In this document: positions 9,029-25,543 of the stretch, in pieces | Layout of the letters: each line of letters opens with the position of its first letter | Position numbering within the stretch: position 1 is the first letter of the stretch | Source: Thermoclostridium stercorarium subsp. stercorarium DSM 8532 | Lineage (GTDB): Bacteria > Bacillota > Clostridia > DSM-8532 | Assembly (NCBI RefSeq): GCF_000331995.1 | Contig: NC_020134.1 | Span: forward strand, 1,959,465 to 2,023,464 | Reading direction: 5' to 3' | DNA length: 64,000 nucleotides | The notes under the pieces: model-generated | What the model was told of the DNA's origin: nothing | Seen by the model: the letters and a program-made list of their open reading frames with translations, nothing else | Database searches by the model: none | Program-made: the position numbers and the translations under genes

Positions 9029-10801
9029 ATGGATAAAAATACCTATTATGAAACAGTCAAAAATATGGCGGTTGAAAAAGTATTAAACCAGTATTGCTCT
9101 GATTCAGATCCATCACGCCCTGCCCTCAAAAAGTTGCTGGTGTATATTTAAAATAAACTCCGCTCCAAACGACTTTCCCTCAAACCCTTATCCCTTCTCG
9201 CCTTAACCCTATTCTCCTAATCTCTTCCAGATAATAAAGTCGGTTCAAAAATTCCATATTTTCATTCCATTTAATAACATTTATTCCTTAATTCTTGTAG
9301 TAATTTTTAAAATAAAGTCGGTTCCAAATAGGGATATGTTGAAAGGAAAATAGGAATAAGTTTCATGGGTTAAGGGTTAAGGTTTTATTTCACCCTTTCA
9401 GTTGCTATATCAATATTATCTTCAATACAGTAGTCAATACTTCTCTCAATCCCTTTAAAATCAATAGTTTTAAGGCTGTAACCAACAAATAATTCTAATC
9501 AAAATTCTAATGAAAAATCTAATAACTTAGTCCTTATACCTTAGCCCTTTCCCCTGTAAAAAAAGCAAACCCCGCAGCAAAACAGGGGTTATCCTGCATT
9601 TACTACGGGATTATGGAATGAACTTTATTTTTATGGAGCGAACTTTATTTTAATGGAGTCAACTTTATTTAAATTATACAGCTGGAGGATTTGCTCGACT
9701 GGTTTATGTTGTCTGAACGCCAAATCTATCTCTTGAAAAACGAGAACGACAAAGGCAACGGCTTTTATGATAGAAAACTTGGTACACCTATGGGTAACCT
9801 GGACATCTCTGTCCCAAGAACTCGCACTGGCGATTTCAGACCCCACATCCTACCTGAACCGTATAAAAGGGTGGATGAATCCTATACAGACCTTCTTATG
9901 TCCCTTGTTGTCAACGGTTATTCAGAATCTTCTCTCTTAAATACCCTCAAAAGCCTCAACCTTCCTTACTCTGATGATGAACTCAACAAAATCAAAGATG
10001 ACCTAAAAAGTGAATTAGACCTTTTCAAACAACGGGAATTACCCGAATCGGTGTTTGCTTTATTAATCGATGCTTATCATTGTGAGATAAAAGACGGCTC
10101 AAAAGTGAAGAAAGCCGCATGCTACATAATCCTTGGCGTTGATATGGAAGGTAAGAAAGACATCTTTGGCCTTTACACCTTCTTCGGCAAAGAAAACAGA
10201 GCCGATTGGAACAAGGTCTTTGAAAGACTTGATAAACCGCGGTCTTAAACGAGTTTTAGTGGTTGTAAGTGATGATTTCCCAGGTATTATCGAGACCGTC
10301 AAAGCTGTATATCCATATGCTGATCATCAGCTCTGTTTTGTACACCTTCAGAGAAATATCCGCAAATACATGACCAAAGCTGATGCCGCAGAATTCAATA
10401 AAGAACTCGATAAAATAAAATTTGCTTCTTCCTTTGATGAAGCTGTTCAAAAGTTTTATGACCTTTGCAGTAAATTTAAGAGTAAATATAGCCGATATAT
10501 GAACATTCTCATGGAGAAAGCAGAACATTATATGGCTTTCATTAAATACCCCGAATCCTTGAGGAAGCATGTTTATACTACCAACAGTGTAGAGAGTATC
10601 AACAGTCTAGTTGAAAAAATTCGGATAAGATCGGGTGGTTACTTTAACTCTGTCGAAGTATTGGAAATTAACATATATTTACAGAGGGAGAACTTAAGGC
10701 GGACAAAATGGAAAAAAGCGGTACCAATGATAAATGCTCACATTTATGAAATACAACAAATTTTCCAGTTACGTTACTTTAATCAGACACAAAATTCTTG
10801 A
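9029..10801 (+). pseudogene. IS256-family transposase, interrupted and frameshifted
   Basis: The ATG at 9029 follows AAAGGAGG. The frame is broken after ALKKLL by miniature element A (9141-9680). It resumes with EDLLDWFMLSERQ and then shifts at about 10224, where copy 2 has GAAGAC and this copy has GAAAGAC. The C-terminus ...YFNQTQNS is in frame here, unlike in copy 2. DDE-type mutator/IS256 features are present: ALLIDAYHCE with the first Asp, VVVSDDFPG with the second, and TTNSVESINS with the Glu. The product is inactive. Confidence 0.9.
9141..9680 (+). mobile_element. miniature Tn7-like element, copy A
   Basis: A 540-bp insert with termini TGTATATTTAAA and TTTAAATTATACA. It is flanked by 5-bp duplications GCTGG (9136-9140, 9681-9685). 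Comparison with the uninterrupted IS256 copy at 30668 proves both boundaries. The left end has three spaced repeats of the form AAATAAAGTCGGTTCCA (9151-9170, 9233-9252, 9311-9330). The right end has three abutting 20-bp copies of the complement (9611-9670). A CCCGCAGC...CTACGGGA hairpin precedes the right repeats. No coding frame is present. TGT...ACA ends, 5-bp duplication and sparse-left/dense-right sites are Tn7-family traits. By eye it matches copy C throughout. Confidence 0.85.
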
Positions 10802-10904
10802 CAACTCTCGGTCTTTTTCTTTTAGAAGCTTTTAAGGCTTAACTTCTTTGCCTTACCATTTGATATTTTAAAAAGTGGCATATCTCCAATTCCTCCTTAA
10901 ATTT

Positions 10905-13583
10905 CTACATCCACGGTTTTATAAGGTGTTCTACTCTTTCCTCATCATTAAGAACAGTACTCACATTTTCCCAATCTACTTTTGCAACATGCTGGCGATA
11001 TTTTATGTCAAATGGATGTTCTTCTTTTTCATCGATATCCTCAATTATATCTTTTATTCTCTCATCCCCCAACAGAGGTGAAACTGGGCCTATTATTTCT
11101 TCGGTATGTTTTATGCGTTTTTTCAGCTTATTATGGACGTGCTCTTCTATCGAACCTCGATAAAACAAGTTATATACATATACCTCCTTATAGAGCTGGC
11201 CCGCACGACGTATACGACCTATTCTCTGTTCCAATCTTATTGGATTCCACGGCAAATCAATATTAATTACCGTCCCAAGGGCTTGCAAATTCAAACCTTC
11301 CCCTGCCGCATCAGTCCCTACCAAAACCTTTAACCTGCCATCAAGTACCAGCCCTTTTATCTCATCACGAGGCATTACATGAAGCTTGCCTTTCTTGTAA
11401 ATTCCCGAACTGTTGCCAATTCCTGCATAAAGCCCAATCCCTACATCTGGAATATCCTCAGAAAGCCTCTGGGCCGTCCACTGAGCAGTATCAAAATACT
11501 CTGAGAATATCACACATCCACGTTCTATCCATTTCATCTTTAATAGAATTTCTTTAATTTTGTTATATTTTAGGTCCTCTTCTCGGTTATTGTCCAGTAT
11601 ATCGATAATTTCGGATAAATATTCTAACTCCTTCGCATTACTAAGGTCGAGAGTTAACAAATCATCATCTTCCATATCCTCTAATTCGTCTTCGGTTAAA
11701 ATTGATTCATCTATGGCTTTCTTTGCAAATATAGCGCGAGCTGTTTTTAAGCCCGCATGTATTGAGCTGCATACCCTTCTCAAAAGCAACGTCTTGTAAA
11801 AACCTTTAGCTCCCCTTTCTTTCAATAAACTTGTGAAATCCAGTGCAAGGTCATATGCCCTTTGTATCCTCCACGGCATACTTAGCCCTCTGTCCTGCCC
11901 CTCTCCAAATTTAATTTCTATTTTCTCCAGGTATGGCTTGCCTGTTTCAGGGTCTATAAGTTTCTCAAGCGTTTCGCGTCGTCTCCTGACCATAAACCTT
12001 ATAAATGGATTGTAATTCTTAAAAAAGTCTTCTCTTGCTATTAAGTCTACTATGTCCCTAACATGCGGGTCTAATTCACTATAATTAAACCTTGCTTTTG
12101 TTTCATCTTTTCTTAAACCTAAAAACTTTCTAAGGTCTCCAAACAAAAAGCTCATATTATCCTCGTCTTCACTAGGTAATGGATCTTTTATCCATTGCCA
12201 CGCGTCACTTCCCAGAGGCATTTCTTTCTGACCGCATATATATGCTATTCCATCTAAATGATGTCGCTTCCATTGACTTATTTCTGAACCAAGTATTCGT
12301 TCACTCCCTTGAGCTAAAATGTACAACAAATCCCACCCTTCAACAGGATGGAGCTGAATGGGTGTTGCTGTTGCCAGTATCATTGTCTTCGTTCTGAGCG
12401 ATAGCTTCACTAGAAAGTTCATCAAATTATTAGACTCTGGTTCTTCTGCAGGTTTATTTAAATTTTTCCTGCGAGCCTTATGTGCTTCGTCAACTAATAC
12501 GCATTCGTATTCAAGCTCCAGCAAAGGTTCAATTGCTCGTGAAGCCCGTTTTATTAACCCATGAGAAATTATCGCTATTTTCCTCGGACATTGAAGAATT
12601 GCTGGTCTGCCATTGCTGGGTTTAACTTCTCGTCCATTTTCAATCACCCACTTATTTCCATCAAATACAGCTGATGGAATTCCAAACATACTCTTTAGCT
12701 CATCCTGCCACTGGAAAAGAAGTGTTTTAGGGACCAGTATAAGTACGGGCTTATCACTGTATAGCGCTGTCAGCTCAGCTATCAAAGCCAGCTGGGCGGT
12801 TTTACCTAAACCCACTTCATCAGCAAGGATATAGCGTGCTCCACCTTTGTTTACATGCTCCTCAAATACCATTTTTATAAAATATTTCTGATGATTCCAA
12901 AGCTCCAAACCATCTTTATACATGGGAGATTCTATGACAACGGAAGCGGGTTCTGGATTTTTCCGCCACTCATCTAATGAAACCACGCGTCTTTGAGCTA
13001 TCCTGCCTATATCTTCTATAATAGCATCACAAAGTTCAAGCGCATATGGATTATTCCAGAAGAAGTCAAACTCCTCTTGTACCCATTTAACACTTTTTTC
13101 TGAATCGTCAGACCACAACATCTCATAGTTTTCTGTCCATGCAGCACGTGTCTCGTTAACACTGCCTATATATGCTATTTTACTGCCATCATGCCTTGTT
13201 ATTACCCCTGCCTTCGCATGAACTAGACCATATACATCATCAGGCATTACCTTTACTTGCATCTTCCCACTTTTCAAAAGGTCATAGAGTTTTTTGAACC
13301 TTTCCTGGCACAAAATTGCCTTTTCTTCTGGCCTTGAATATTTCCATTCTTTTACCAATTTGCGCTTTACCATCTTCGCAACCTCTACATCTTCTTTTTT
13401 CACATTTGAGTTGCATACCACTCTAATTGGCCCATCTACACTTTCTATTGCCTCACCAGCCACTTCAAGAACAGATGAGCAAAAGTAACCTGCAAGTCTA
13501 TCGTAACCCTGGGCATTTTTGAGAGATGGGTTCAAGAACTCGTCTAATAGATTGTTTCGGCGTGAAGAGTAGTGATTCAACAT
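10905..13583 (-). CDS. PLD/SNF2-type DEAD-like helicase of a four-gene defence operon
   Basis: About 890 aa. The N-terminal phospholipase-D-like domain has HAKAGVITRHDGSKIAYIG (about residues 120-140), followed by a superfamily 2 SNF2-type helicase. Helicase motifs are DEVGLGKTAQ (Walker A, about 255), VDEAHKARR (Walker B, about 365), LATATPIQ, VGTDAAGEGLNLQ and QRIGRIRRAGQ (about 790). All key residues are present. The frame is open to TTG 13604; I chose ATG 13583 (MLNHYSSRRNN), although neither start has a good ribosome site. It is the last gene of the operon, 60 bases after the methylase. Family knowledge suggests ATP-driven DNA translocation plus a PLD domain that may bind or cut DNA. The role in phage defence is inferred from its partners. 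Confidence 0.88.
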   Translation of the reverse strand: MLNHYSSRRNNLLDEFLNPSLKNAQGYDRLAGYFCSSVLEVAGEAIESVDGPIRVVCNSNVKKEDVEVAKMVKRKLVKEWKYSRPEEKAILCQERFKKLYDLLKSGKMQVKVMPDDVYGLVHAKAGVITRHDGSKIAYIGSVNETRAAWTENYEMLWSDDSEKSVKWVQEEFDFFWNNPYALELCDAIIEDIGRIAQRRVVSLDEWRKNPEPASVVIESPMYKDGLELWNHQKYFIKMVFEEHVNKGGARYILADEVGLGKTAQLALIAELTALYSDKPVLILVPKTLLFQWQDELKSMFGIPSAVFDGNKWVIENGREVKPSNGRPAILQCPRKIAIISHGLIKRASRAIEPLLELEYECVLVDEAHKARRKNLNKPAEEPESNNLMNFLVKLSLRTKTMILATATPIQLHPVEGWDLLYILAQGSERILGSEISQWKRHHLDGIAYICGQKEMPLGSDAWQWIKDPLPSEDEDNMSFLFGDLRKFLGLRKDETKARFNYSELDPHVRDIVDLIAREDFFKNYNPFIRFMVRRRRETLEKLIDPETGKPYLEKIEIKFGEGQDRGLSMPWRIQRAYDLALDFTSLLKERGAKGFYKTLLLRRVCSSIHAGLKTARAIFAKKAIDESILTEDELEDMEDDDLLTLDLSNAKELEYLSEIIDILDNNREEDLKYNKIKEILLKMKWIERGCVIFSEYFDTAQWTAQRLSEDIPDVGIGLYAGIGNSSGIYKKGKLHVMPRDEIKGLVLDGRLKVLVGTDAAGEGLNLQALGTVINIDLPWNPIRLEQRIGRIRRAGQLYKEVYVYNLFYRGSIEEHVHNKLKKRIKHTEEIIGPVSPLLGDERIKDIIEDIDEKEEHPFDIKYRQHVAKVDWENVSTVLNDEERVEHLIKPWM

Positions 13584-13642
13584 AATCAGGCGGGGACAAC
13601 CCAAAAGCTGAGGTGTCCCCTTTCGCCCCCTTTCCAGCGAGG

Positions 13643-16600
13643 TTACATTCTATCATTTACAACCCTTTCCAACAGGTGGCGTGCTATTCTTGAATCTTCT
13701 ACCCATTGAGGTAATATGCTGAGATTTGAGATATATCTCAATAGTATCTCCACCTTTAGTTTTTTATGCCAGTATTCACTGCCAAGCTTGTTTTTCAGCC
13801 ACTCGTGGCCAATGCTAATCGCTGTAGTCTCATCGCCTATTTCCCTTATTTTTTCCTGCGTCACGTTGATTGCAGCAAGTATATATCTCAGCATCGTATT
13901 ACTAAACCCATGTTGAGTTTCTAAAATTGTCATTCCAAACTCCGTTGCCGTTTTTACTCTTGCCCTATTTACCCTATTTTCTCCCAGCAAATCATCATAA
14001 TCCAGTATGCCCAGCCCTCTGGCAGCATCCTGGTATAACTTTATTTTCCTTTCCCCTTCCTTCTCAAACTCAAGGCCGCGAATGTAATATTTCTCGTAGT
14101 TATTCAAGCTGGCCCACACTTCCCTAATGCTTTCAATATCGTAACCCAATCCCTTAAATCCCTCAGGCAGGATAATGCTGCTTGCATACGAGCGCATATC
14201 TTCCAGGAATTCTGTCATTTTTTCCTCTGATTCGCTAATATCATATGCAGTCAATACCCTCAATGCCGCATAATACCCTGCAAGCTCTAGATCAGCTGAT
14301 GTAAAGATTTTATTGCCTTTAAGCCCATTTTCAACCTCCATCATATAATGGATCTGCTTCTCCACTTCATTTTTTACAATACCACGAAGCTGTCTTAAGA
14401 AAGCTTTTTGCCTCTTATAAGCCGAATCCTTTTTGAGAATTATCGCCACTGTTGACTGAACGTAGTTACCTTCATCAATTCCTACCGATTCTGTTTCGGT
14501 AGCGACAGACCACGCATTCATAATCCTTAAGCCCGCTGAGAGCAGAATTTGAACAAGGCTTGCAAATACCTTTGCGCTTTGATGCGTGAACATTATTATA
14601 ACATAACCGCCTTCAAGTGTATGTTCGGCTATATTCTTGAAGGCTTCCGTCATGGCAAGCTTAAATTGGTCATCCGACCCTTTTATAGCCAATGCCCTTT
14701 TGCTGTCCGTATACCACTCAGGGAAAACTTCTTTTAAAAACTTCTTGTCCCATGCTAAAAAGAACTCCGAAAGCTCGTGGTAGTTAACTGCATCGGCATA
14801 GGGGGGATCAGTAAGCCAGACCATGCAATAGTTTTGTAGTATTCTGGCATCTAAAAGATTAGTATATAAAACTTTGTGTTCAATATTAAATAACCTATTT
14901 AATTTAAAAAACCAAGATTCATCTAGAGCTTTTAATCCTCTTACACCGTAATTAAATAAAGTATTTAAGGCTTGGTTATAAAAAGTTTGAGCTGTATGTC
15001 CTATCCCACCAGATTTTGTAGGATCCCATATACATAACTTAGAATTCCAATTACAGCACCTATTCACCCCCAGCAGTCCCACAATTCTCTCTTCTCTTGT
15101 CTTTGCTTCTTTGTCAATCAGCTCCATCAAAAGCCCGTGTAAAAGGAGCTGGCGGGGGTTGAAAAGCTGATGCCAGTATGCCCAGCCTCTCTCTCTTATT
15201 GGCTGAGATGTATTATAGCCTTCTTCAATCACATCGCTTGGAATATACCCTTTTTGTTGCCACTCGCTGAACCTTTCTCCTAAAAGCTCAATTACCTTCT
15301 TTTCCCTTTCCAAATCCTCCTCATCTGGTGCTTTGTAATACCTTTCTGTCCTTATTCTTCCATTTTCATCTTTGTACTCCTTTTCATACCTTATACAGTA
15401 AAGCCTCTCCTGGAATACGTCATCTTCCCTTGGCACAAATTCATGCTTTTCCCAACGCCTTAAGCCCCAAATGGTATTGCCTTTTTCGTCCTTTTTGTCT
15501 CCCCTTATCTTCGATATAGGCACGCTGTTTTTACAGTGCGGGCATTTGAGTTCACTCCTCATCACGGTACCTTTCTTGGCTATTTCCATCTCTTCATCGC
15601 TTGCATTCATTTTTATCTCTATATCAAAGCTTTTACTCTCAGCGTTTTCTTTTAAAATAGCAACGGTTCTCGTATTCTTTCCAATTATCCACGAGGGAGC
15701 TAGTGGTACCCTCCACCCACAATCAGGGCAAACCGCTTCTGTGCAGTAAAGATAAGCGTTTGCTCTATGCCCTTGCGAGTTGTGCTCTATGCCCCATTCT
15801 GTTATCTGCTTATCAGCAAGTTTAAATATCCTCTCTTGAAATGCTTTCAGCTTTTTTATTTTATCTTCTGGCAGCCCTAAAAGGTTCAGGGCAGACCATG
15901 TCAAGAGCATTGCAACTGGGTTTAGATCAGAAGCATACACATTAAAACCCAATCTTGCTGCTTCAAAGGGTATGTTACCCCCTCCACAAAAAGGATCGCC
16001 AACTGTTGGAACGTGTCCAAAACGCCTCTCTCCCAATTGCTTTACTATTTCCTGATATGAATATGCATTTGTTCCCAAATAATTATTAATATCTTCCCAT
16101 GTCTCTCTCGATAGATTATCAACCTTATCCAAACCTTCGCAGTATTTTAATTTCAAATCATAAGGTAATCGCTTGAAAATTTCCAATTCATACTGGTTAC
16201 ACTTTAATCCAAGATGTACTTTAAAATACTGCTTCTTTTCTTCCTCAGTAGCATATTTAAAAGCTATTTCAGCAGGTAACGTATCAAGGCTGTAGTTCTC
16301 ATCTTTTATTCTCTTTACTACCTCTTTCTTGAAAGTATGGAGCACTGAGCCATTGGTTTTATACTCAATGACCGCACCGCAATCTGCTTTTTCCTCATCA
16401 GTCATATACTCATATACGACAATAGGCTCTAACTTTTTATTTTTTCGCTTTAATAGCTCACGTTCTGATAAACCCAATAATTTCATATAGATTTCTGTAT
16501 CCCTTTTAATGTCATCTGAAGCAGGAAGCAGAATGCCTAATAACAGCGCACGAGCATACACAAGAGGTTTTCTGCCCCACCACTTGCCAAGGCCTGTCAG

Positions 16601-16690
16601 TATTTGCCCCGCTCCTGATTTTCGTTCTTTATACGTCTCATATGACATAAGTTTAGGGAAAAAAACCTTTTCTATTATGCTTTCGCTCAC
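13643..16690 (-). CDS. DUF1156-type DNA methyltransferase
   Basis: A 1015-aa predicted adenine/cytosine-N DNA methylase. The N-terminal DUF1156 region includes LTGLGKWWGRKP (about 31-42). The SAM-binding motif DPFCGGGNIPFEAA is at about 232-245, and the catalytic motif DPPYADAVNYHEL at about 626. Two CxxC pairs between them (CPDCGW and CPHCKN) suggest a zinc ribbon. The GTG start overlaps the DUF3780 stop as GTGA, so translation is probably coupled. In this operon type the methylase is thought to mark host DNA or modify targets for the defence machinery. The target site is unknown. All catalytic motifs are intact and no frameshift is seen over 3 kb. Confidence 0.92.
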   Translation of the reverse strand: MSESIIEKVFFPKLMSYETYKERKSGAGQILTGLGKWWGRKPLVYARALLLGILLPASDDIKRDTEIYMKLLGLSERELLKRKNKKLEPIVVYEYMTDEEKADCGAVIEYKTNGSVLHTFKKEVVKRIKDENYSLDTLPAEIAFKYATEEEKKQYFKVHLGLKCNQYELEIFKRLPYDLKLKYCEGLDKVDNLSRETWEDINNYLGTNAYSYQEIVKQLGERRFGHVPTVGDPFCGGGNIPFEAARLGFNVYASDLNPVAMLLTWSALNLLGLPEDKIKKLKAFQERIFKLADKQITEWGIEHNSQGHRANAYLYCTEAVCPDCGWRVPLAPSWIIGKNTRTVAILKENAESKSFDIEIKMNASDEEMEIAKKGTVMRSELKCPHCKNSVPISKIRGDKKDEKGNTIWGLRRWEKHEFVPREDDVFQERLYCIRYEKEYKDENGRIRTERYYKAPDEEDLEREKKVIELLGERFSEWQQKGYIPSDVIEEGYNTSQPIRERGWAYWHQLFNPRQLLLHGLLMELIDKEAKTREERIVGLLGVNRCCNWNSKLCIWDPTKSGGIGHTAQTFYNQALNTLFNYGVRGLKALDESWFFKLNRLFNIEHKVLYTNLLDARILQNYCMVWLTDPPYADAVNYHELSEFFLAWDKKFLKEVFPEWYTDSKRALAIKGSDDQFKLAMTEAFKNIAEHTLEGGYVIIMFTHQSAKVFASLVQILLSAGLRIMNAWSVATETESVGIDEGNYVQSTVAIILKKDSAYKRQKAFLRQLRGIVKNEVEKQIHYMMEVENGLKGNKIFTSADLELAGYYAALRVLTAYDISESEEKMTEFLEDMRSYASSIILPEGFKGLGYDIESIREVWASLNNYEKYYIRGLEFEKEGERKIKLYQDAARGLGILDYDDLLGENRVNRARVKTATEFGMTILETQHGFSNTMLRYILAAINVTQEKIREIGDETTAISIGHEWLKNKLGSEYWHKKLKVEILLRYISNLSILPQWVEDSRIARHLLERVVNDRM

Positions 16691-17277
16691 AAATTACTGC
16701 CTCCTTCGTAGTCCCAAATACTCAACTGCCTTGTTTTTTCTTCATCAACTGGGTTTTCTAACAGACCATATTTTATTCCCTTTCGCCAACCCATGTTTTT
16801 TTCGTTGGCACTACCCGTTGCCGCATTGGCAAGTCCATACAAAAACCATCTTTCCTCTGGCCTGAGCCCCTGCCAATTGATTATTGCTTTCGGCAGAATG
16901 TCAACATCCTCAACATCTTCCACTGCCCACAACAGAAGTACTAACTCTTTCCCCATAAGCCTGTTAACAGGATTGTTCCCTGTTTTCCATTTATAAATCT
17001 TATATCCTTCTTTTCTAAGTCTGGAGTTAAATTCCTGGGAGAGGTATGAGGATAATCTTTCCCAGATATTGTAAGCAACTACCACTTTTAATTTGTTCTC
17101 TGTCGTCCTGCTTTCATCTATACCTTTTAAATCCTCTTCTCCACGCCATACAAAACGCTCGTATACTTTTACCTTTTCTTTTTTACTCTTAGGGATAATC
17201 ACCATAAAATGGTGGTGAGTCTCTTCTGGATTAAAACCATAACCATATGTTAGCGTCTTGATTTGTGTTTTGCCCAT
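16687..17277 (-). CDS. DUF3780-type defence-associated protein
   Basis: A 196-aa protein starting MGKTQIKTLTYGYGF. I chose ATG 17277 because AAGGAG lies a suitable distance upstream; a TTG at 17286 is also open. The N-terminal GYGFNPEETHHHFMVIIPK and the C-terminal RPEERWFLYGLANAATG followed by GWRKGIKYGLLENP match my recollection of DUF3780, a small family found between DUF499 and DUF1156 genes in defence islands. There is no catalytic motif, membrane segment or signal peptide, so an adaptor or structural role is plausible but unproven. It starts 22 bases after the DUF499 stop and overlaps the methylase by 4 bases. Confidence 0.75.
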   Translation of the reverse strand: MGKTQIKTLTYGYGFNPEETHHHFMVIIPKSKKEKVKVYERFVWRGEEDLKGIDESRTTENKLKVVVAYNIWERLSSYLSQEFNSRLRKEGYKIYKWKTGNNPVNRLMGKELVLLLWAVEDVEDVDILPKAIINWQGLRPEERWFLYGLANAATGSANEKNMGWRKGIKYGLLENPVDEEKTRQLSIWDYEGGSNL

Positions 17278-17299
17278 ATATCTCAAGCTCCTTATACTT

Positions 17300-20200
17300 T
17301 TACGGTTGTTCTACTTCTCCACTGCAATCTTCTATCTTCTTGTTCTGTAACTTCAACCATTCCAAAAAGTCCTTCCCTGTTTCAAAACGCATGGTTTCAA
17401 ATCTACCGCTAACCTGCGCTTGACTGTCTCTAATAATCTCCGTTGACAGGTTCTCAACCAAATTCTGGAGTAAATCAATATCTATTCCTTCTCCTTCAGA
17501 AAGTATCACTGTCATTTCACGTTTAGAATCCTGGTTGCCTCTTATGTCAAGGTAAATCTTCACGGGTTTAGCATTGCTGGACTTCAACTTTTGTATCTCA
17601 TAATAATAAGCCACTTTATCGCTGAAACGCACAAAGTTATTGCTGCGTGGCTGATATTTAACAGGTTTTGCTGGGTTAATAACAAGCCCCATTTTGGTGT
17701 TAATTTCAAGTACATTCGAATACCCCTTATCGTTTTGAGCAACTATTAGAAGAAGTTGAACTTGTGCAGGATCAACAATTATCTCATCTCCTTCTAATAA
17801 AACTCTTGTATCGCTAGTAACAGGCGAAGAGCCGTCTGTTGTGTAATAGATATCTGCTTCTGGCAAGCTTTTCACTTTTATATGCTTTAGTCCTTGCATA
17901 TCTGTAGCCTCTTCAGCCTTTCTTAGTTTTATAGGGCAAGTAAATACATATGGATCACCATCAATATTTGCGCCAGAGGAATCCATTGCAACAAATGTAA
18001 ACTTATCGTTCCTGCCAGGCTTCAATCTGAATTCGTCCCAATTATCCACATTTTTGGCGGTAACTAAATCTATTGTGGTGCCTGGATTATAATAGACTGT
18101 ATCTGCATTCTTAACATTTAACTTCAAAACAATCTCATCATTTTCAAAATCATATTCAACATCGCTGTCTACCGTTACAGCTGCTTTATGCTGCGGTTTG
18201 AGTATTATTTCATAGCCATCTTCGAGCCATTTCCCAGTTCTTATTTTCCAATCTTTATACCTATCCAGTAAATCTGGTACATGCCATACCCATTTTGGCC
18301 TGTCAGCTGCACGTTGCCTTATCTCATCCCATGTGATAGAGGTCCGCTGGGATGTAGCAATATCTAACAAAGAAGCTTGGACGTCTTCGTCAAGCTCGGC
18401 CATTTCTTTTGGATCGTTGATATCAATTTCAATATACTTTCCCTCGTTTTTAAGCGACTGTTTAATTACTTCTTCCCCGTCACGGTTGTTACCAAGCAGT
18501 TGGTCTACCACAGATTTAGCAGAAAAAACACTATTCCTACTTTGCCTTGTCTTCACTGGCTCCGCCTCAGATTTCTTAGTTATAGTACTGTAATCTATCT
18601 CTATTTGATGTAGGTAATCCTTTGTAATATCGTTATTTGGGTAATATAATTTCTGGAAGGTCGATTTGATTCGTTCCAAAACCCTCAAGGCACTGTTACC
18701 CAATTCACTTTCAGCTCGCTTATACTCTGGATCTATTGAACTAACCCCTATCCCGTTTAATGCATTCATAACTTCGTCCCACGCCAAATAGTCCTTCATG
18801 CTTTCTATCAGTTCTTTGTAGTATCTGTTTGAACCTGTTAAAAACAACAACCTGTTTTTGTTATGTTCAAGTTCCGTCCACCACTCAACAAGTAAAGGAT
18901 TTAGCTCACCAGCGGCATTTACAGGCTTAGAGATTACCAATGTAATTTCTTCTCGTTTAGGCAGCAAGCTGCTCAAATCCTTAGGCAGCGCCACTATGTT
19001 TTGATATACAGCCTGGTAGCAATCCTTATCACGTGGTTCAAAGTATGTCATTAGCGTTCTTTGTAGTGTATCTTCTGCCGTACTATCAGTAATCGTTTCT
19101 CTATATCTTACCATTTGCGCTATGACATTCTCATTGTAACCGAAATACTTTTTACCTCGCTGATTCTCTTTTGAATATGATGTACGACGCCAATACTCTT
19201 CAAACACGCTTTTGGCCTTGTTTACATCATCATTCGGTTCGAGAGTATAGGCATATATTTCTTCCTCAGTTAAACCTATTGCTTCTGTATCAGTTGAGGG
19301 CAACGATGCAAATAAAATGGCCTTGGCAAACTTACTCGCAAGACTAGTATTATGCTTTTTATCTATCTGTTGAGCCGCAGACCCACCGCTTAAAGAATGC
19401 ACATCCCTATTTATAGCATTGTCCAAATCAGGATTTATTGACACTAGCAAATCTCTCATATCGTTGCCGTTTTCCTGACTTAAATCGTAGTCGCTTACAG
19501 TTATAAAATACTTATGGGGTAATTTGTCTCGATTGAGATACAGGTACCGAACATATCGTCTGAATAATCTTAGCAATCCCCGTGTCTGTTGAAACTTTAA
19601 GTTGTTTCTGAAGTTAGCTATCAATTCAACAATCCCTGGATGAAAAGGATAGCATTCTTTAAACCTTAACTTGATCTTGTCTGCTGCATCGGCTATTAGC
19701 CCTGATTTTTCAAGGCTGGATAAAAAATCAAAATAAGCATCAGCAATAGCATTAACATTAGGATCCGCCTGGGGTATTGCAGGATACTGTTCAAAAAGTT
19801 TCTTCCGAAGGATTTCGTAAATTTCTGGACTGCTAATATCAATGGGTTTTAATATTTCTGCAGTTCGTTCTGCCTCATCCTTGAGTGAAAGCGCCGTTTT
19901 ATTAATAACATATTCGCTTCCCCTCTCATATTTCGCTTCAAGGTCGGATATCACCACCACTACTCTTGACAGGTCAGGATAATTTAAAGCATTAAACAAA
20001 TTAGCCAAACCACTACTTACAAAAACTGCCTTAGTAGAGTCACCTTTAGGTATTGTCTCTGCAGTTTCAAAATAAAATGGCAGCTCGTCCAAAAGCAACA
20101 GGAGAGGACCTCCTCCCAAAAGTTCACGCCAATCACTATCACTTGGTGGTTCTAATCCTTCTCTCACACTCGGTACGAGTAAATTGAGTCTGTTTAACCT

Positions 20201-20602
20201 GCGTGCAATTTCTATCCATGGCAGTTCTGTAGTATTTCGCCCTGTAAAACCTACAATCTCTATTTTACCCTCATATAAATATGGAAAGTCAGCCCCTAAT
20301 ATTTGCTTTCTCATGCTTGGATACTGTGCTAACAGACCAAGCGCAATCATGTTGTGAGTCTTGCCGCCACCCATTGACTGCTTTAATACAATCAGACCTG
20401 AACCATCACTTTGCCCGATAAACCTGGCAAAAGCTTTCCTAAAAAGTAAAGTCATATTTTTAGTAACATAGGTTTTCGAAAAAAAATCATTCGGGTCTAT
20501 TTTCTTGTCTAAAAACAGATTTAATTCCTGAGCATCCTCTATGCTTCCACCTTTCAATGTTTCCTCTCGGGGCTTACAAAGCTCAAAAATTGTCTTTAGC
20601 AT
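17300..20602 (-). CDS. DUF499-type AAA-like ATPase of the defence operon
   Basis: A 1100-aa P-loop ATPase and first gene of the operon, with GGAGGT upstream of ATG 20602. Walker A is QSMGGGKTHN (75-84), and Walker B is LLLLLDELPFYFE with the DE pair at about 172-173. The N-terminal half is the DUF499 ATPase core. The C-terminal third is rich in beta-like segments (about 800-1000, for example VKSLPEADIYYTTDGSSP), suggesting an Ig-like or carbohydrate-domain-like fold. Known gene neighbourhoods couple DUF499 to DUF1156, DUF3780 and a helicase as a predicted anti-phage set (called Hma, for helicase-methylase-ATPase, in defence-system catalogues). The intact motifs suggest the system is functional. 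Mechanism is unknown. Confidence 0.88.
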   Translation of the reverse strand: MLKTIFELCKPREETLKGGSIEDAQELNLFLDKKIDPNDFFSKTYVTKNMTLLFRKAFARFIGQSDGSGLIVLKQSMGGGKTHNMIALGLLAQYPSMRKQILGADFPYLYEGKIEIVGFTGRNTTELPWIEIARRLNRLNLLVPSVREGLEPPSDSDWRELLGGGPLLLLLDELPFYFETAETIPKGDSTKAVFVSSGLANLFNALNYPDLSRVVVVISDLEAKYERGSEYVINKTALSLKDEAERTAEILKPIDISSPEIYEILRKKLFEQYPAIPQADPNVNAIADAYFDFLSSLEKSGLIADAADKIKLRFKECYPFHPGIVELIANFRNNLKFQQTRGLLRLFRRYVRYLYLNRDKLPHKYFITVSDYDLSQENGNDMRDLLVSINPDLDNAINRDVHSLSGGSAAQQIDKKHNTSLASKFAKAILFASLPSTDTEAIGLTEEEIYAYTLEPNDDVNKAKSVFEEYWRRTSYSKENQRGKKYFGYNENVIAQMVRYRETITDSTAEDTLQRTLMTYFEPRDKDCYQAVYQNIVALPKDLSSLLPKREEITLVISKPVNAAGELNPLLVEWWTELEHNKNRLLFLTGSNRYYKELIESMKDYLAWDEVMNALNGIGVSSIDPEYKRAESELGNSALRVLERIKSTFQKLYYPNNDITKDYLHQIEIDYSTITKKSEAEPVKTRQSRNSVFSAKSVVDQLLGNNRDGEEVIKQSLKNEGKYIEIDINDPKEMAELDEDVQASLLDIATSQRTSITWDEIRQRAADRPKWVWHVPDLLDRYKDWKIRTGKWLEDGYEIILKPQHKAAVTVDSDVEYDFENDEIVLKLNVKNADTVYYNPGTTIDLVTAKNVDNWDEFRLKPGRNDKFTFVAMDSSGANIDGDPYVFTCPIKLRKAEEATDMQGLKHIKVKSLPEADIYYTTDGSSPVTSDTRVLLEGDEIIVDPAQVQLLLIVAQNDKGYSNVLEINTKMGLVINPAKPVKYQPRSNNFVRFSDKVAYYYEIQKLKSSNAKPVKIYLDIRGNQDSKREMTVILSEGEGIDIDLLQNLVENLSTEIIRDSQAQVSGRFETMRFETGKDFLEWLKLQNKKIEDCSGEVEQP

Positions 20603-20953: not shown

Positions 20954-22834
20954 GGTTCTTTCCAGAGTTAGTTGATTTAATATAAAAGTATGGTATAATG
21001 AAAAAGTATTAAACAAAAGAAAAGAGGTAATTTTATGGATGAGTTTATTAAGCAGTTAGATCAAAATCTAGACTACATTTGTCATGAAATAATTAATGGC
21101 AGATGCTATATAACAGTAGCTTCCAACCGTAAAGAAGTAATATGTCCATTCTGCGGTTGGCCATCATCCAAAACACATTCCACATATAGCAGAACCTTTC
21201 AGGATCTTCCAATACAAGGTAATAAGGTATTTATTATTATGCGTAATAGAAAGATGTTTTGTAATAATCCTGACTGTAATCATACTACTTTTGCAGAAAG
21301 ATTTGATTTCATTTCCGATAAGGCGAAGAAAACACAACGCCTTGAGGATGAAATTGTACGCCTGTCATTAAATTGCAGTTCTGTTGCGGCGTCTAAAACT
21401 CTGAGGGAGAATGTTGCGGATGTTGGTAAAAGTACTATCTGCAACCTCTTAAAAAAAAGAAATACCTGTTGTTGATAAGGAGAATGTAATAGCTGTCTGC
21501 ATTGATGATTTCGCCATTAGGAAACGTGAAAGCTATGGAACAATTATGGTGGATATCTCCAAACGTCAAATAATTGATATGATTAACTCAAGAGATTATG
21601 AAACTGTCTGCAAGTGGCTAAAAACATACCCAAATCTTCATGTGGTATCGAGAGACGGGTCTGTCACCTATAATAATGCAATTGCAGATGCACATCCGGG
21701 GGCTTTACAAATAAGTGATCGTTTTCACTTACTGAAGAATCTGACCTCATATGGGAAGGAGTATCTAAAAAAGAAGCTAAAGCCACAAATCTTAATACAA
21801 GCGGTTAGTCAGGAAACTTCCAATGAAGGAACAGGAACAATTAAACAGGCAGATGAAAATAGAAAACTTACATTAAAAGAGAAATATGAGCGGATAGAAC
21901 AACTTCTAGCAGCAGGAAAGTGCAAAACAGCAATCTGCCAAAGCATAAATATGGATATACGGGCTTATGATAGGCTGATGTCAATGACGCCCGAAGAAAG
22001 AGAATCTTCATTTCAAACAAAGATGATGACCGTGCACGAAGAGAAAGTGAAACAAAAAATGGAACGTGTGAATGAAGTGCGTGAGTTAAAGAAAATAGGT
22101 TGTAGCAATCATGAGATATCCAGACGTACTGGACTTAATAGATCAACAATTCGGAGATATCTTGATGAAAACTTTAATCCAGTCCATGCTTCCTATGGCA
22201 AAAAGAAAAACGGGAAACTAACACCATACATAAAAGAAATTGATGAATGTCTTGAGAAAGGGATTATGGGTTCTGAGATTGAAAAAAAGATACGTGGGAT
22301 GGGATATGATGGTTCATCATCAACTGTGCGGCAGTACATAACAGATTGGAAAAGGTGTAGAAAATTATATTACGATAGAAGTAGAGAAGGTGGAAGAAAA
22401 ACGGAAACAATTGAAAGAAAAAATATTTTTAAGCTATTATACCACCCAATAGAGAATGTGAAGTCAATCAGCCGGGAACAATTTGAAAGGATATGCAATG
22501 AATATCCTTGTTTTGAAAAGATACATAGTATAATATGGGAATTTAAAGGACTTCTCACTGGTAAAAATGTTGACGCACTCGATAAATGGATGGAGAAAGC
22601 AAAAAAGCTAGGTATACCGGAAATAGACAGTTTTATATGTGGACTTGAACGGGATTTGGATGCCGTGAGGAATGCGATAAAATATGAATATAGCAATGGG
22701 CTTGTAGAAGGGAGTATTAATAAACTGAAGGTAATAAAACGAGTTATGTATGGGCGATGCAGTTTTGAAACATTAAGAACCAAAACTCTCCGGCTTGAAA
22801 AAATGCGATTGCTCAACTAACTCTGGAAAGAACC
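20954..22834 (+). mobile_element. ISL3-family insertion sequence
   Basis: Perfect 22-bp terminal inverted repeats start GGTTCTTTCCAGAGTTAGTT. They are flanked by an 8-bp duplication ATTAATAT (20946-20953, 22835-22842). Length is 1881 bp. Perfect ends and duplication point to a fairly recent insertion. Confidence 0.95.
21035..22820 (+). pseudogene. ISL3-family transposase with one frameshift
   Basis: The N-terminal frame (21035-21475) has the zinc-binding CPFCGW...CNNPDC motif. The second frame (from about 21460 to 22820) carries the DDE domain: AVCIDDFAIRKRESYGTIMVD, VSRDGSVTYNNAI, ISDRFHLLKN and NGLVEGSINKLK. The switch lies in a run of eight A at 21451-21458. Seven A would give a continuous LKKEIPVVDKENVIAV reading. 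It could be a recent loss of function, a sequencing error, or slippage that lets some full-length product form. Full length would be about 595 aa, longer than the usual 400-550, because a helix-turn-helix region (about 21890-22340) lies inside the DDE domain. Confidence 0.88.
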
Positions 22835-24148: not shown

Positions 24149-25543
24149 GTTATAGTCTCAAGTAGTGGTGTAAATTTCGTGGAGGCTAATTGACAAAAGT
24201 AACCACGATATGATTTCTACTTTATTAGGGAAACAAAACAAAACAAATAAAGTAGAGGAGGTCATACCGTGGCTACTAATAATAGAATGGCACTTTTAGA
24301 ACAACTTAGCAAGTATGTTGTTGAAAAAGATAAAGATTTTTTAAAAGAAGCATTAACATTACTCATTAATGCCCTAATGGATGCGGAAGTTACATCAATA
24401 ATAGGTGCTGAAAAGTATGAAAGGAATAATAATAGAAACAACTATCGCAATGGATATCGTCTAAGAGAATGGGATACTCGAGTAGGAACATTACAGTTAA
24501 GCATTCCCAAGTTACGTCACGGAAGTTATTTTCCAAGTCTTTTAGAACCGAGGAAAATGTCAGAGAAAGCATTATTGAATGTAGTTCAGGAAGCCTATGT
24601 TCATGGAGTAAGTACCAGGAAGGTGGATGAACTTGTAGAAGCTCTTGGAATGAAAGGGATTGATAAAAGCGAAGTATCAAGAATCAGTAAGCAACTGGAT
24701 GAATTTGTAGAAGAATTTAAAAACCGTAGACTGGAAGGAGAATATCCTTACCTTTGGCTTGATGCCACTTTCCCCAAGGTTCGGGAAGGAGGCAGGGTAT
24801 GCAGTATGGCACTAGTTATAGCAGTAGGAGTTAATCAACAAGGTGAACGGGAAATATTAGGTTTTGATGTAGGGATGAGTGAAGACGGGGCTTTTTGGGA
24901 GGAGTTTTTAAGAAGGCTGGTAGCAAGGGGTCTAAAAGGTGTAAGGCTTGTAATCAGTGATGCACATGAAGGGCTGAAGGCTGCAATAAAGAAGATTTTA
25001 ACGGGAAGTGCATGGCAAAGATGCCGTGTACATTTTATGAGAAACGTATTAAGCCAGGTACCAAAGCATTATCAGGGAATGGTATCATCGATAATACGGA
25101 CAATATTTGCCCAGAATGATCAGGAATCTGCGAGGGAACAGTTAAGGCATGTAGTAGATGAGCTTAAAAATCGTTTTCCAAAAGCAATGAAAATTCTTGA
25201 AGAAGCAGAAGAAGAAATCCTGGCATATATGGCTTTTCCCCGTGAGCATTGGGCACAGATACACTCCACCAATCCTCTTGAGAGACTTAACCGGGAAATT
25301 CGCCGTCGAACGGATGTTGTTTGCATATTTCCAAATCGTGAGGCGGTAATCCGATTGGTAGGAGCAATGCTCATGGAACAAAATGATGAATGGAAAGTAG
25401 GGCGGCGCTATTTCAGTCTGGAATCAATGTCAAAGATTACATCGATAAATGAATTTACATTGACACCAGTAGCTTTATTACATAAATGAGGTGAAAAAAT
25501 GATAAAGTAGAAATCATTTTACACCACTTGACAAGACACTATC
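24149..25543 (+). mobile_element. IS256-family element, copy 3 (distinct type, intact)
   Basis: A 1395-bp element with imperfect terminal repeats, GTTATAGTCTCAAGTAGTGG at the left and GATAGTGTCTTGTCAAGTGG (complement) at the right, both running into TGTAAA. An 8-bp duplication CAACTGTA lies at 24141-24148 and 25544-25551. The duplication is built from the last two bases of copy C, the AC spacer and the first four bases of copy D. The insertion therefore split a pre-existing C-D junction. Confidence 0.93.
24269..25489 (+). CDS. IS256-family transposase (intact)
   Basis: A 406-aa mutator-type DDE transposase with an intact frame and AGAGGAGG before the start. GTG or ATG alternatives are close by; the frame reads MATNNRMALLEQLSKY. 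Catalytic residues fit WLDATFPKV (first Asp), VISDAHEGLKAA (second Asp) and HSTNPLERLNREIRRR (Glu). The C-terminal RRxD segment is typical of the family. It differs clearly from the transposases of copies 1 and 2, so two IS256 lineages occupy the region. It is the only transposase here without a frameshift and could still be active. Confidence 0.95.
   Translation: MATNNRMALLEQLSKYVVEKDKDFLKEALTLLINALMDAEVTSIIGAEKYERNNNRNNYRNGYRLREWDTRVGTLQLSIPKLRHGSYFPSLLEPRKMSEKALLNVVQEAYVHGVSTRKVDELVEALGMKGIDKSEVSRISKQLDEFVEEFKNRRLEGEYPYLWLDATFPKVREGGRVCSMALVIAVGVNQQGEREILGFDVGMSEDGAFWEEFLRRLVARGLKGVRLVISDAHEGLKAAIKKILTGSAWQRCRVHFMRNVLSQVPKHYQGMVSSIIRTIFAQNDQESAREQLRHVVDELKNRFPKAMKILEEAEEEILAYMAFPREHWAQIHSTNPLERLNREIRRRTDVVCIFPNREAVIRLVGAMLMEQNDEWKVGRRYFSLESMSKITSINEFTLTPVALLHK

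What the first reader, a model, noticed from the sequence alone, without database searches (positions are those of the whole stretch)
10905..20602. Intact four-gene DUF499-DUF3780-DUF1156-helicase defence operon
All catalytic motifs are present: Walker A/B in DUF499, DPFCGGG and DPPY in the methylase, DEAH and a PLD motif in the helicase. The genes are tightly packed with a GTGA overlap. The same set is catalogued as a predicted anti-phage system (Hma). It is intact amid heavy decay and IS insertion on both sides, which suggests selection. Its mechanism and the role of DUF3780 are not established as far as I know.
Basis: partly seen in the sequence, partly recalled or inferred. Interest (0 to 1): 0.65.

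Follow-up and report, generated by a model that had tools for sequence, protein, structure and literature searches.

The report
BREX-related defence operon with clamp-like tail
This is an intact four-gene bacterial defence operon of an already described type; comparing relatives suggests that its one unexplained protein may hook the system onto the DNA-replication clamp, and that phages have repeatedly picked up that protein without the hook.

Summary
In detail: four intact, same-strand genes at 10905-20602 (DUF499 ATPase, DUF3780, DUF1156 adenine methylase, PLD-Snf2 helicase) with the expected motifs, under purifying selection, between broken insertion sequences. The name does not: the three genes shared with Hma fit another PADLOC gene set far better, and the locus meets the sequence features tested of the "Type-2 BREX-related (BR)" system described in 2026 (PMC12839542; the RRM-like end of DUF499 is inconclusive). 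A new member of a known kind. A ribosome-binding site and about 30 codons of a broken fifth gene follow the helicase.

New here is a lead on DUF3780, whose role is open. In operons its variable C-terminal tail often carries a sliding-clamp-binding-like motif (QxxLF 19 of 60 distinct tails, xxxLF 36 of 60; shuffles 0.45 and 6.1). The window's QLSIW is only a loose match. DUF3780 also occurs without the operon in phages and prophages, in about six separate groups on the tree; 0 of 9 such tails carry the motif and 8 of 9 are cut short. I propose that DUF3780 tethers the methylase/restriction complex to DnaN, and that phage copies are decoys or borrowed parts. Neither is shown; both are easy to test.

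The parts
17300..20602 (-). DUF499 AAA+ ATPase (BrxC-like role), 1100 aa; Walker A motif from residue 76, Walker B from 167
   Evidence: PF04465 6e-17; PADLOC DUF499 419 bits; NF042962 524 bits, under its cut-off
17690..18193 (-). two tandem FnIII-like domains of DUF499 (residues about 804-971)
   Evidence: AlphaFold2 model pLDDT 87.4, pTM 0.52; Foldseek best E 2.5e-5 to FnIII chains; VIA-align: second domain Z 10.6, rmsd 1.9, 75 aligned; both together up to Z 7.6
17384..17662 (-). [quoted passage not shown] residues about 981-1073)
   Evidence: secondary structure of the model; no fold match listed for this part
16687..17286 (-). DUF3780, 199 aa; TTG start listed, ATG 9 bases inside
   Evidence: (PF12635 4e-43)
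16714..16728 (-). QLSIW, loosely clamp-binding-like pentapeptide in the C-terminal tail of DUF3780 (residues 187-191)
13643..16690 (-). DUF1156 N6-adenine DNA methylase, 1015 aa; DPFCGGGN from residue 233, DPPY from 629
   Evidence: 810.9 bits; NF042963 1150 bits, over cut-off
10905..13604 (-). PLD (HKD)-Snf2 helicase, 899 aa; HAK from residue 144, GSVN from 162, GLGKT from 280, DEAH from 387
   Evidence: PF13091, PF00176, PF00271; 776.6 bits; NF042964 1151.9 bits, over cut-off
10790..10881 (-). remnant of a fifth gene: ribosome-binding site before it, ATG at 10881, 19 codons to a stop, about ten more codons in another frame, then the insertion sequence
   Evidence: read from the sequence
9691..10801 (+). 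broken Mutator/IS256-type transposase (two overlapping ORFs) downstream of the operon
21035..22820 (+). split ISL3-type transposase (two ORFs) upstream of the operon

Best explanation
A restriction-modification-like defence operon, Type-2 BR. The DUF1156 methylase marks host DNA; the DUF499 ATPase assembles the complex and senses foreign DNA; the HKD-Snf2 helicase translocates and cuts unmarked DNA. DUF3780 is proposed to be the adaptor that docks this complex on the replication sliding clamp DnaN through a C-terminal clamp-binding-like motif (window: QLSIW), so that newly made, hemimethylated host DNA is marked at the fork and unmarked replicating invader DNA is met there. Shown: gene set, motifs, domain make-up, purifying selection, enrichment of the motif in tails. 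Inferred from families and PMC12839542: the RM-like roles. Inferred here: the clamp tether.
For: Set and domains. Order DUF499-DUF3780-methylase-helicase in 10 of the 12 loci (one DUF3780 and one methylase among them are split; L024 is cut by its contig, L033 has only a helicase-like piece), and in plasmid, viral and E. coli loci. Selection: dN/dS 0.095-0.158. Tail: of 60 distinct operon tails, QxxLF 19 (2000 shuffles: mean 0.45, max 4), xxxLF 36 (6.1, 15), any of three clamp-like patterns 48 (8.4, 19); ends of 241 other long ORFs: 2, 24, 27. By groups the motif is in 15 of 15, 9 of 9, 8 of 8, 7 of 7 and 2 of 2 for five of eleven. With a strict pattern the ends of the other operon proteins give 0 of 33, 0 of 31 and 0 of 34. 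In the same genome two DinB-type polymerases carry QLSMF and QISMF, MutS QLDLL, and PolC ends in QVCFL; DnaN is present. Published consensus QL[S/D]LF, more generally QxxLF, with xxxLF in some polymerases (PMC12309361, passages); transposases use such C-terminal motifs (PMC4549789, passages).
Against: No binding test could be run. The window's QLSIW fits only the loose pattern Q..[LIFM][FLW], not QxxLF or xxxLF, and the four next relatives (L012, L014, L015, L017) have QLDFE, which fits none. Twelve of 60 distinct tails fit no pattern; six of eleven groups have it in part or not at all: 4 of 6, 2 of 6, 2 of 5, 1 of 3, 1 of 2, 0 of 1. The E. coli protein (366 aa) has an extra C-terminal stretch and does not end in such a motif. 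The loose patterns were chosen after reading the tails, and Fisher p-values treat related sequences as independent. The strict pattern also occurs somewhere inside 3 of 33 DUF499 and 6 of 31 methylases.
Confidence: 0.5

Rival explanations
1. DUF3780 is a reader of methyl marks that replaces the TUDOR domain missing from Type-2 helicases (the published proposal).
For: PMC12839542 section 30: DUF3780 is fused in a subset to ASCH/PUA and RAMA domains. The E. coli protein has an extra C-terminal stretch that looks RAMA-like to my eye (not tested by a search).
Against: The DUF3780 model (pLDDT 87.6) matched no solved structure convincingly (Foldseek best E 0.39, VIA best Z 3.0), so no reader fold supports it. 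It does not explain the recurrent tail motif. It can be true together with the clamp tether.
Confidence: 0.3
2. The tail motif is a docking peptide for another operon protein (methylase or DUF499), not for DnaN.
For: Tail and motif occur with the operon and are missing from lone DUF3780s; the motif is short and loose or absent in several groups.
Against: The resemblance is to the published clamp consensus in particular, in the Q, L and F positions, and a hexapeptide-type form (QLSLSL, QLALSL) appears in one group; the host's own clamp users have similar letters.
Confidence: 0.25
3. Lone phage DUF3780s are passengers or phage replication/recombination proteins with no bearing on the operon.
For: The Proteus phage Pm34 copy is a raw 1126-bp piece, 92% identical and gap-free to the E. 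coli operon, cut off inside both genes. Several others lie among Holliday-junction resolvases, a Sak4-like annealing protein or a terminase, which would fit a replication role.
Against: About six separate groups nested among operon sequences and dN/dS 0.148 between L059 and L061 speak against mere passengers.
Confidence: 0.45
4. The operon in this genome is a relic without activity.
For: Insertion sequences on both sides, a broken fifth gene, promoter-like sites no more frequent than in shuffles (29 found, 29.3 expected), and no DUF3780 in any of 40 relatives.
Against: Four full-length frames with all motifs, dN/dS about 0.1 to L022.
Confidence: 0.1

Closest known systems
Type-2 BREX-related (BR) system (PMC12839542, 2026)
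   Same: Same four genes; DUF499 with two FnIII-like domains before a possibly RRM-like end; HKD at the N-terminus of the Snf2 helicase; DUF1156 methylase; standalone DUF3780.
   Different: Nothing found that excludes membership. Clamp-like tail and phage-borne copies are not in the passages I saw: 'clamp', 'DnaN' and 'C-terminal tail' occur 0 times in its main text, DUF3780 7 times; its supplements were not read.
Hma (PADLOC, PMC8565338) / Type-1 BR
   Same: Homologous helicase, methylase and DUF499-type ATPase (weaker model hits).
   Different: Three genes, no DUF3780; a different nuclease on the helicase in Type-1 (PMC12839542 section 29); HmaA/B/C models score far below the other set.
'Restriction-like' (RL) system of Gao et al. 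2020 / DefenseFinder Gao_RL
   Same: Recalled as the same four-gene set and as tested in E. coli; NCBIfam names all four families 'antiphage'.
   Different: From memory only: the paper is not held. One search listed 13 papers with the string 'Gao RL', most of them unrelated; none was read.
Type 3 BREX (BrxC, BrxXI, BrxHII)
   Same: Stated in PMC12839542 section 28 to be mirrored by the DUF499/methylase/helicase core; BrxHI/BrxHII models hit the helicase at 1.9e-33.
   Different: Four genes; none of the 10 neighbouring ORFs scanned with Pfam is a BREX gene (not all neighbours were scanned).
PbeABCD
   Same: PbeA is also an HKD-helicase; model hit 9.2e-40.
   Different: PbeC is an ABC ATPase (PMC10853773, passages); the weak DUF3780 hit to it (4.8e-4) was not followed up.

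Membership tests
Type-2 BR system | DUF499 ATPase with Walker motifs | tested here: met
Type-2 BR system | two FnIII-like domains before the DUF499 C-terminus (53% of Type-2 taxa) | tested here: met
   (Fn3_assoc 21.0 bits, under its cut-off of 23); rests on a predicted model
Type-2 BR system | RRM-like C-terminal domain of DUF499 | tested here: inconclusive
   [quoted passage not shown] the rows of the fold comparison cover residues 25-192 only
Type-2 BR system | HKD nuclease at the N-terminus of a Snf2 helicase | tested here: met
   PF13091 at 54-183, PF00176 at 238-433; HxK and GSxN conserved
Type-2 BR system | DUF1156 N6-adenine methylase | tested here: met
   PF06634 and MethyltransfD12; DPPY 10 of 10 rows. 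Methylation itself not tested
Type-2 BR system | standalone DUF3780 within the core locus | tested here: met
   PF12635 4e-43
Type-2 BR system | anti-phage activity | not testable with these tools
   needs phage challenge
Hma (PADLOC) | proteins fit HmaA, HmaB, HmaC better than any other set | tested here: not met
   125/101/127 bits against 777/811/419 for the other set
Hma / Type-1 BR | C-terminal PD-(D/E)XK nuclease on the helicase (79% of Type-1 taxa) | tested here: inconclusive
   no such Pfam hit at E up to 0.1 in the 899-aa protein; HMMER filters may miss it
Bacterial clamp-binding proteins | QxxLF consensus | tested here: not met
   window has QLSIW; 19 of 60 distinct operon tails meet QxxLF
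Bacterial clamp-binding proteins | binds DnaN | not testable with these tools
   no complex prediction or binding assay available

The most novel reading that the evidence does not exclude
DUF3780 is a replication-clamp adaptor: it ties a BREX-related restriction-modification machine to DnaN so that self-marking and restriction happen at the replication fork, much as a PCNA-binding motif serves a maintenance methylase in eukaryotes (recalled). Phages have captured the DUF3780 core about six times without the clamp motif, as a decoy that occupies the complex but cannot dock it.
Probability: 0.25. Interest if true: 0.85.

Novelty: new member of a known kind. Interest (0 to 1): 0.52.

Why it matters
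The locus itself adds one divergent member to a described system. The comparison gives a concrete handle on DUF3780, the part for which no fold relative is known: a short motif with a named partner that one peptide assay and one point-mutant strain can test, and natural motif-less versions in phages that can be tried as anti-defence proteins. If right, it would link an RM-like defence to the replisome.

Tried and rejected
Solved relatives of DUF3780: none convincing by single sequence (best E 0.084, ribonucleotide reductase), none by profile (0 at E up to 0.1); Foldseek/PDB, VIA-align and viral models gave nothing convincing, which does not show that the fold is new. PHROGs gave no family for the window's or the Pm34 protein. 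DUF499 and the methylase have no PDB relative by sequence at the limits used.

Archaeal test (a PCNA-type motif would be expected there): I first took L037 (QMTLDQFL) for possibly archaeal, but its genes look bacterial to me. The plasmid searches listed 20 records each and none was archaeal; an archaeal plasmid record that I asked for is not held, and I made no genome search centred on archaea. Left open.

PbeC hit of DUF3780 (4.8e-4): PbeC is an ABC ATPase going by PMC10853773; not pursued.

Promoters: as many as in shuffles; terminator-like sites 11 against 7.2 +/- 3.2. Similar DNA among plasmids (megablast): none.

Rows dropped or moved: L018 was first counted among operon tails and moved to 'lone' after I read its contig L106. 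L021 (weak fragment, below the family cut-off) and the first piece of L027's frameshifted DUF3780 were left out; L082, a further lone DUF3780 without GWR and without the motif, was left out of the 9. E. coli and the re-fetched duplicates L065-L081 were not in the tail counts. All 64 operon-labelled loci have a hit to at least one other operon gene. The operon-against-lone Fisher test is weak, because 8 of 9 lone tails are 14 residues or shorter; on independent pairs the sign test gives median p 0.0625 for the motif and 0.031 for tail length. The groups follow the tree loosely; 'Alpha' is not one clade there. The 241 background ORFs are mechanical long ORFs, not annotated genes.

Not in print, as far as searched: 'DUF3780' occurs in one held paper; 'sliding clamp' with 'anti-phage defense' and 'clamp-binding motif' in none; of the two papers listed and the 8 of 66 listed I saw only the listing, save PMC12839542. 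Papers: PMC12839542 sections 28-30 and passages; PMC8565338, PMC10853773, PMC4549789, PMC12309361, PMC8713573 passages; others listing only or recalled.
Full report
Observation. The four ORFs exist where stated, all on the minus strand: DUF499 (1100 aa), DUF3780 (199 aa), methylase (1015 aa) and helicase (899 aa). Pfam, PADLOC and NCBIfam name all four. The helicase and methylase pass NCBIfam's equivalog cut-offs; DUF3780 (143.5 of 200) and DUF499 (524 of 1200) do not, so those two are divergent. The catalytic motifs are present and invariant or nearly so in the 10-11 rows aligned. The genome is one 2.97-Mb contig; it has one DUF499 and one DUF3780 match, both here. 0 of 40 relatives have DUF3780, and 19 of the other 397 genomes drawn from the phylum do, 18 of them over the family's cut-off: the patchy pattern of a mobile defence locus.

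Selection and flanks. The nearest relative, L022 (a Clostridiales metagenome genome, helicase 80% identical), keeps the same order. dN/dS is 0.101 (helicase), 0.158 (methylase), 0.095 (DUF3780) and 0.107 (DUF499), by Nei-Gojobori in a script. Both flanks hold transposases, broken nearest the operon. A full-length IS256-type element lies further upstream. A stretch of about 125 bases at its end (window 25419-25543) recurs, in whole or part, in 9 places of this genome, this one included and one of only 32 bases (12 of 70 candidates scored), identically in two genomes of other genera of the family, and at the end of the L022 contig. After the helicase there is a ribosome-binding site and the start of a fifth gene (19 codons, a stop, about ten more codons in another frame, then the insertion sequence). 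In L022 that place holds a 656-aa protein whose best PADLOC hits are Old, AriA and GajA, and a 642-aa protein with HEC-06 and Orf5 hits, DUF262-type by eye; in E. coli UMNK88 a gene annotated 'restriction endonuclease'. So the core is intact, but this island has probably lost an accessory gene.

What it is. PMC12839542 (sections 28-30) defines Type-2 BR by these parts. From memory, this set is also the 'restriction-like' system of Gao et al. 2020; I could not read that paper.

How it may work. The paper proposes an RM-like cycle: methylase marks self, ATPase assembles and senses, HKD-helicase cuts. I accept this as the best-supported frame; no activity was tested here. The open part is DUF3780. 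Its model is confident (pLDDT 87.6, pTM 0.84) and matches nothing solved convincingly, as the paper also reports.

The tail. Past the conserved GWR-x-A core, operon DUF3780s have a variable tail, 16-83 residues long in this set. Reading these tails I saw QLNLF, QLELF, QMELF, QIDLF, QISLF, QMTLF in Bacillota and kin, TLGLF/SLGLF/SLDLF in gammaproteobacterial types and QLSLSL/QLALEI in a soil group: letters like those of bacterial clamp-binding motifs. The published consensus is QL[S/D]LF, more generally QxxLF, with only xxxLF kept in some polymerases (PMC12309361, passages). Counted on 60 distinct tails: QxxLF 19, xxxLF 36, any of (xxxLF, Q..[LIFM][FLW], Q[LMI].L.[LIF]) 48; shuffled tails give means of 0.45, 6.1 and 8.4; the last 35 residues of 241 other long ORFs give 2, 24 and 27. 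With a strict pattern the ends of the other three operon proteins (850 aa or longer) give 0 of 33, 0 of 31 and 0 of 34. By group, on all 64 tails (51 with a pattern): 15 of 15, 9 of 9, 8 of 8, 7 of 7, 2 of 2, but 4 of 6, 2 of 6 (the window's own group: QLSIW, QISFW, and four with QLDFE), 2 of 5, 1 of 3, 1 of 2 and 0 of 1. The window's own tail fits only the loosest five-letter pattern. In the window's genome the two DinB-type polymerases carry QLSMF and QISMF, MutS QLDLL, PolC ends in QVCFL, and DnaN is at G000:C1:1707-2792. The motif lies in the low-confidence end of the DUF3780 model (residues 187-191; block means of pLDDT 73 and 42), as expected of a short linear motif. The loose patterns were drawn up after seeing the data, and related sequences are not independent; the published QxxLF count is the safest number.

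DUF3780 without the operon. Proteus phage Pm34 has a DUF3780 (Pfam 235 bits) beside a fragment of the DUF499 end (PADLOC DUF499 213 bits, positions 852-1021 of 1022). No helicase relative was found in the 50,697 phage records at 1e-20, and no DUF499 or DUF1156 Pfam hit in the Pm34 record (the DUF499 Pfam model does not see the fragment). The Pm34 piece is a gap-free 1126 bp, 92% identical to the E. coli operon, so it may be a recent passenger. Of 29 IMG/VR loci with DUF3780, 22 carry other operon genes and 7 do not. Of these 7, six have phage-type genes near by that PHROGs recognises: terminase and portal (L056), RusA and terminase (L058), resolvase (L059), Sak4-like (L060), RusA (L061), primase/helicase (L063); L064 was not tested. 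A prophage-like contig of a genome of the window's phylum (L018/L106, with a phage-type tail protein and methylase) has one too. DUF1156 was absent from that genome (95% complete) and from the eight other records searched (0 of 9), though most virus records are fragments. A tenth, L082, was seen later.

These lone copies are not one family branch: on a 73-row tree the label needs 7 changes, at least 6 forced by well-supported branches, and one clade is rejected (p-AU 9e-62). I read this as about six captures out of operons; the tree does not give the direction, and some long branches (L058 above all) make single placements unsure. None of 9 has a clamp-like tail; 8 of 9 stop within 14 residues of the core, L063 has a long tail without motif. 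L059 and L061 evolve under constraint (dN/dS 0.148). So phages have taken the core repeatedly, and at least one lineage seems to keep it by selection. Whether as decoy, as an aid to their own methylation, or for recombination is not known; the neighbourhoods (resolvases, annealing protein, terminase) leave the last open.

Verdict. A confirmed, well-kept member of a known system under a wrong name; ordinary in itself. The tail motif and the phage-borne cores are, as far as the searches go, not described, and they turn the open question of what DUF3780 does into two short experiments.

Noticed in passing
window 10790-10881: Ribosome-binding site and start of a fifth, broken gene after the helicase, cut by a stop/frameshift and an insertion sequence.
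   Followed up: partly
L022:11163-15165: In the nearest relative the operon is followed by an Old/Gabija-like protein and a HEC-06/Orf5-like (DUF262-type by eye) protein: a defence island.
   Followed up: partly
L034:7352-8477 (Proteus phage Pm34): Phage carries a 1126-bp piece, 92% identical to an E. coli BR operon: end of DUF499 plus DUF3780 core.
   Followed up: yes
L106:1969-2996 (G206, contig 139): Prophage-like contig with a lone DUF3780 next to a small phage-type DNA methylase; a nearby protein (588-1733) has QMDLF near its end, itself clamp-like.
   Followed up: partly
L032:6820-15907 (Thermobrachium celere): Methylase split in two frames, and a second split methylase copy downstream of the helicase.
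   Followed up: no
L085 and L094 (Deinococcus plasmids): DUF3780 is followed by a Phd-type antitoxin and VapC toxin gene where the methylase usually stands.
   Followed up: no
L083:1-558 (Desulfosarcina plasmid): A separate gene annotated 'FN3 associated domain-containing protein' lies before DUF3780, where the end of DUF499 is expected, as in phage Pm34.
   Followed up: no
L110:5300-6400 (E. coli UMNK88): DUF3780 of 366 aa with an extra C-terminal stretch, RAMA-like by eye, and no clamp-like end. A methylase DNA query matches 49 of 5426 E. coli genomes, 17 of them over at least 80% of the query.
   Followed up: partly
window 24269-25543 and elsewhere in G000: IS256-type element whose end recurs in 9 places of the genome (one of 32 bases only) and is identical in two other genera of the family: probably recently active.
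   Followed up: partly
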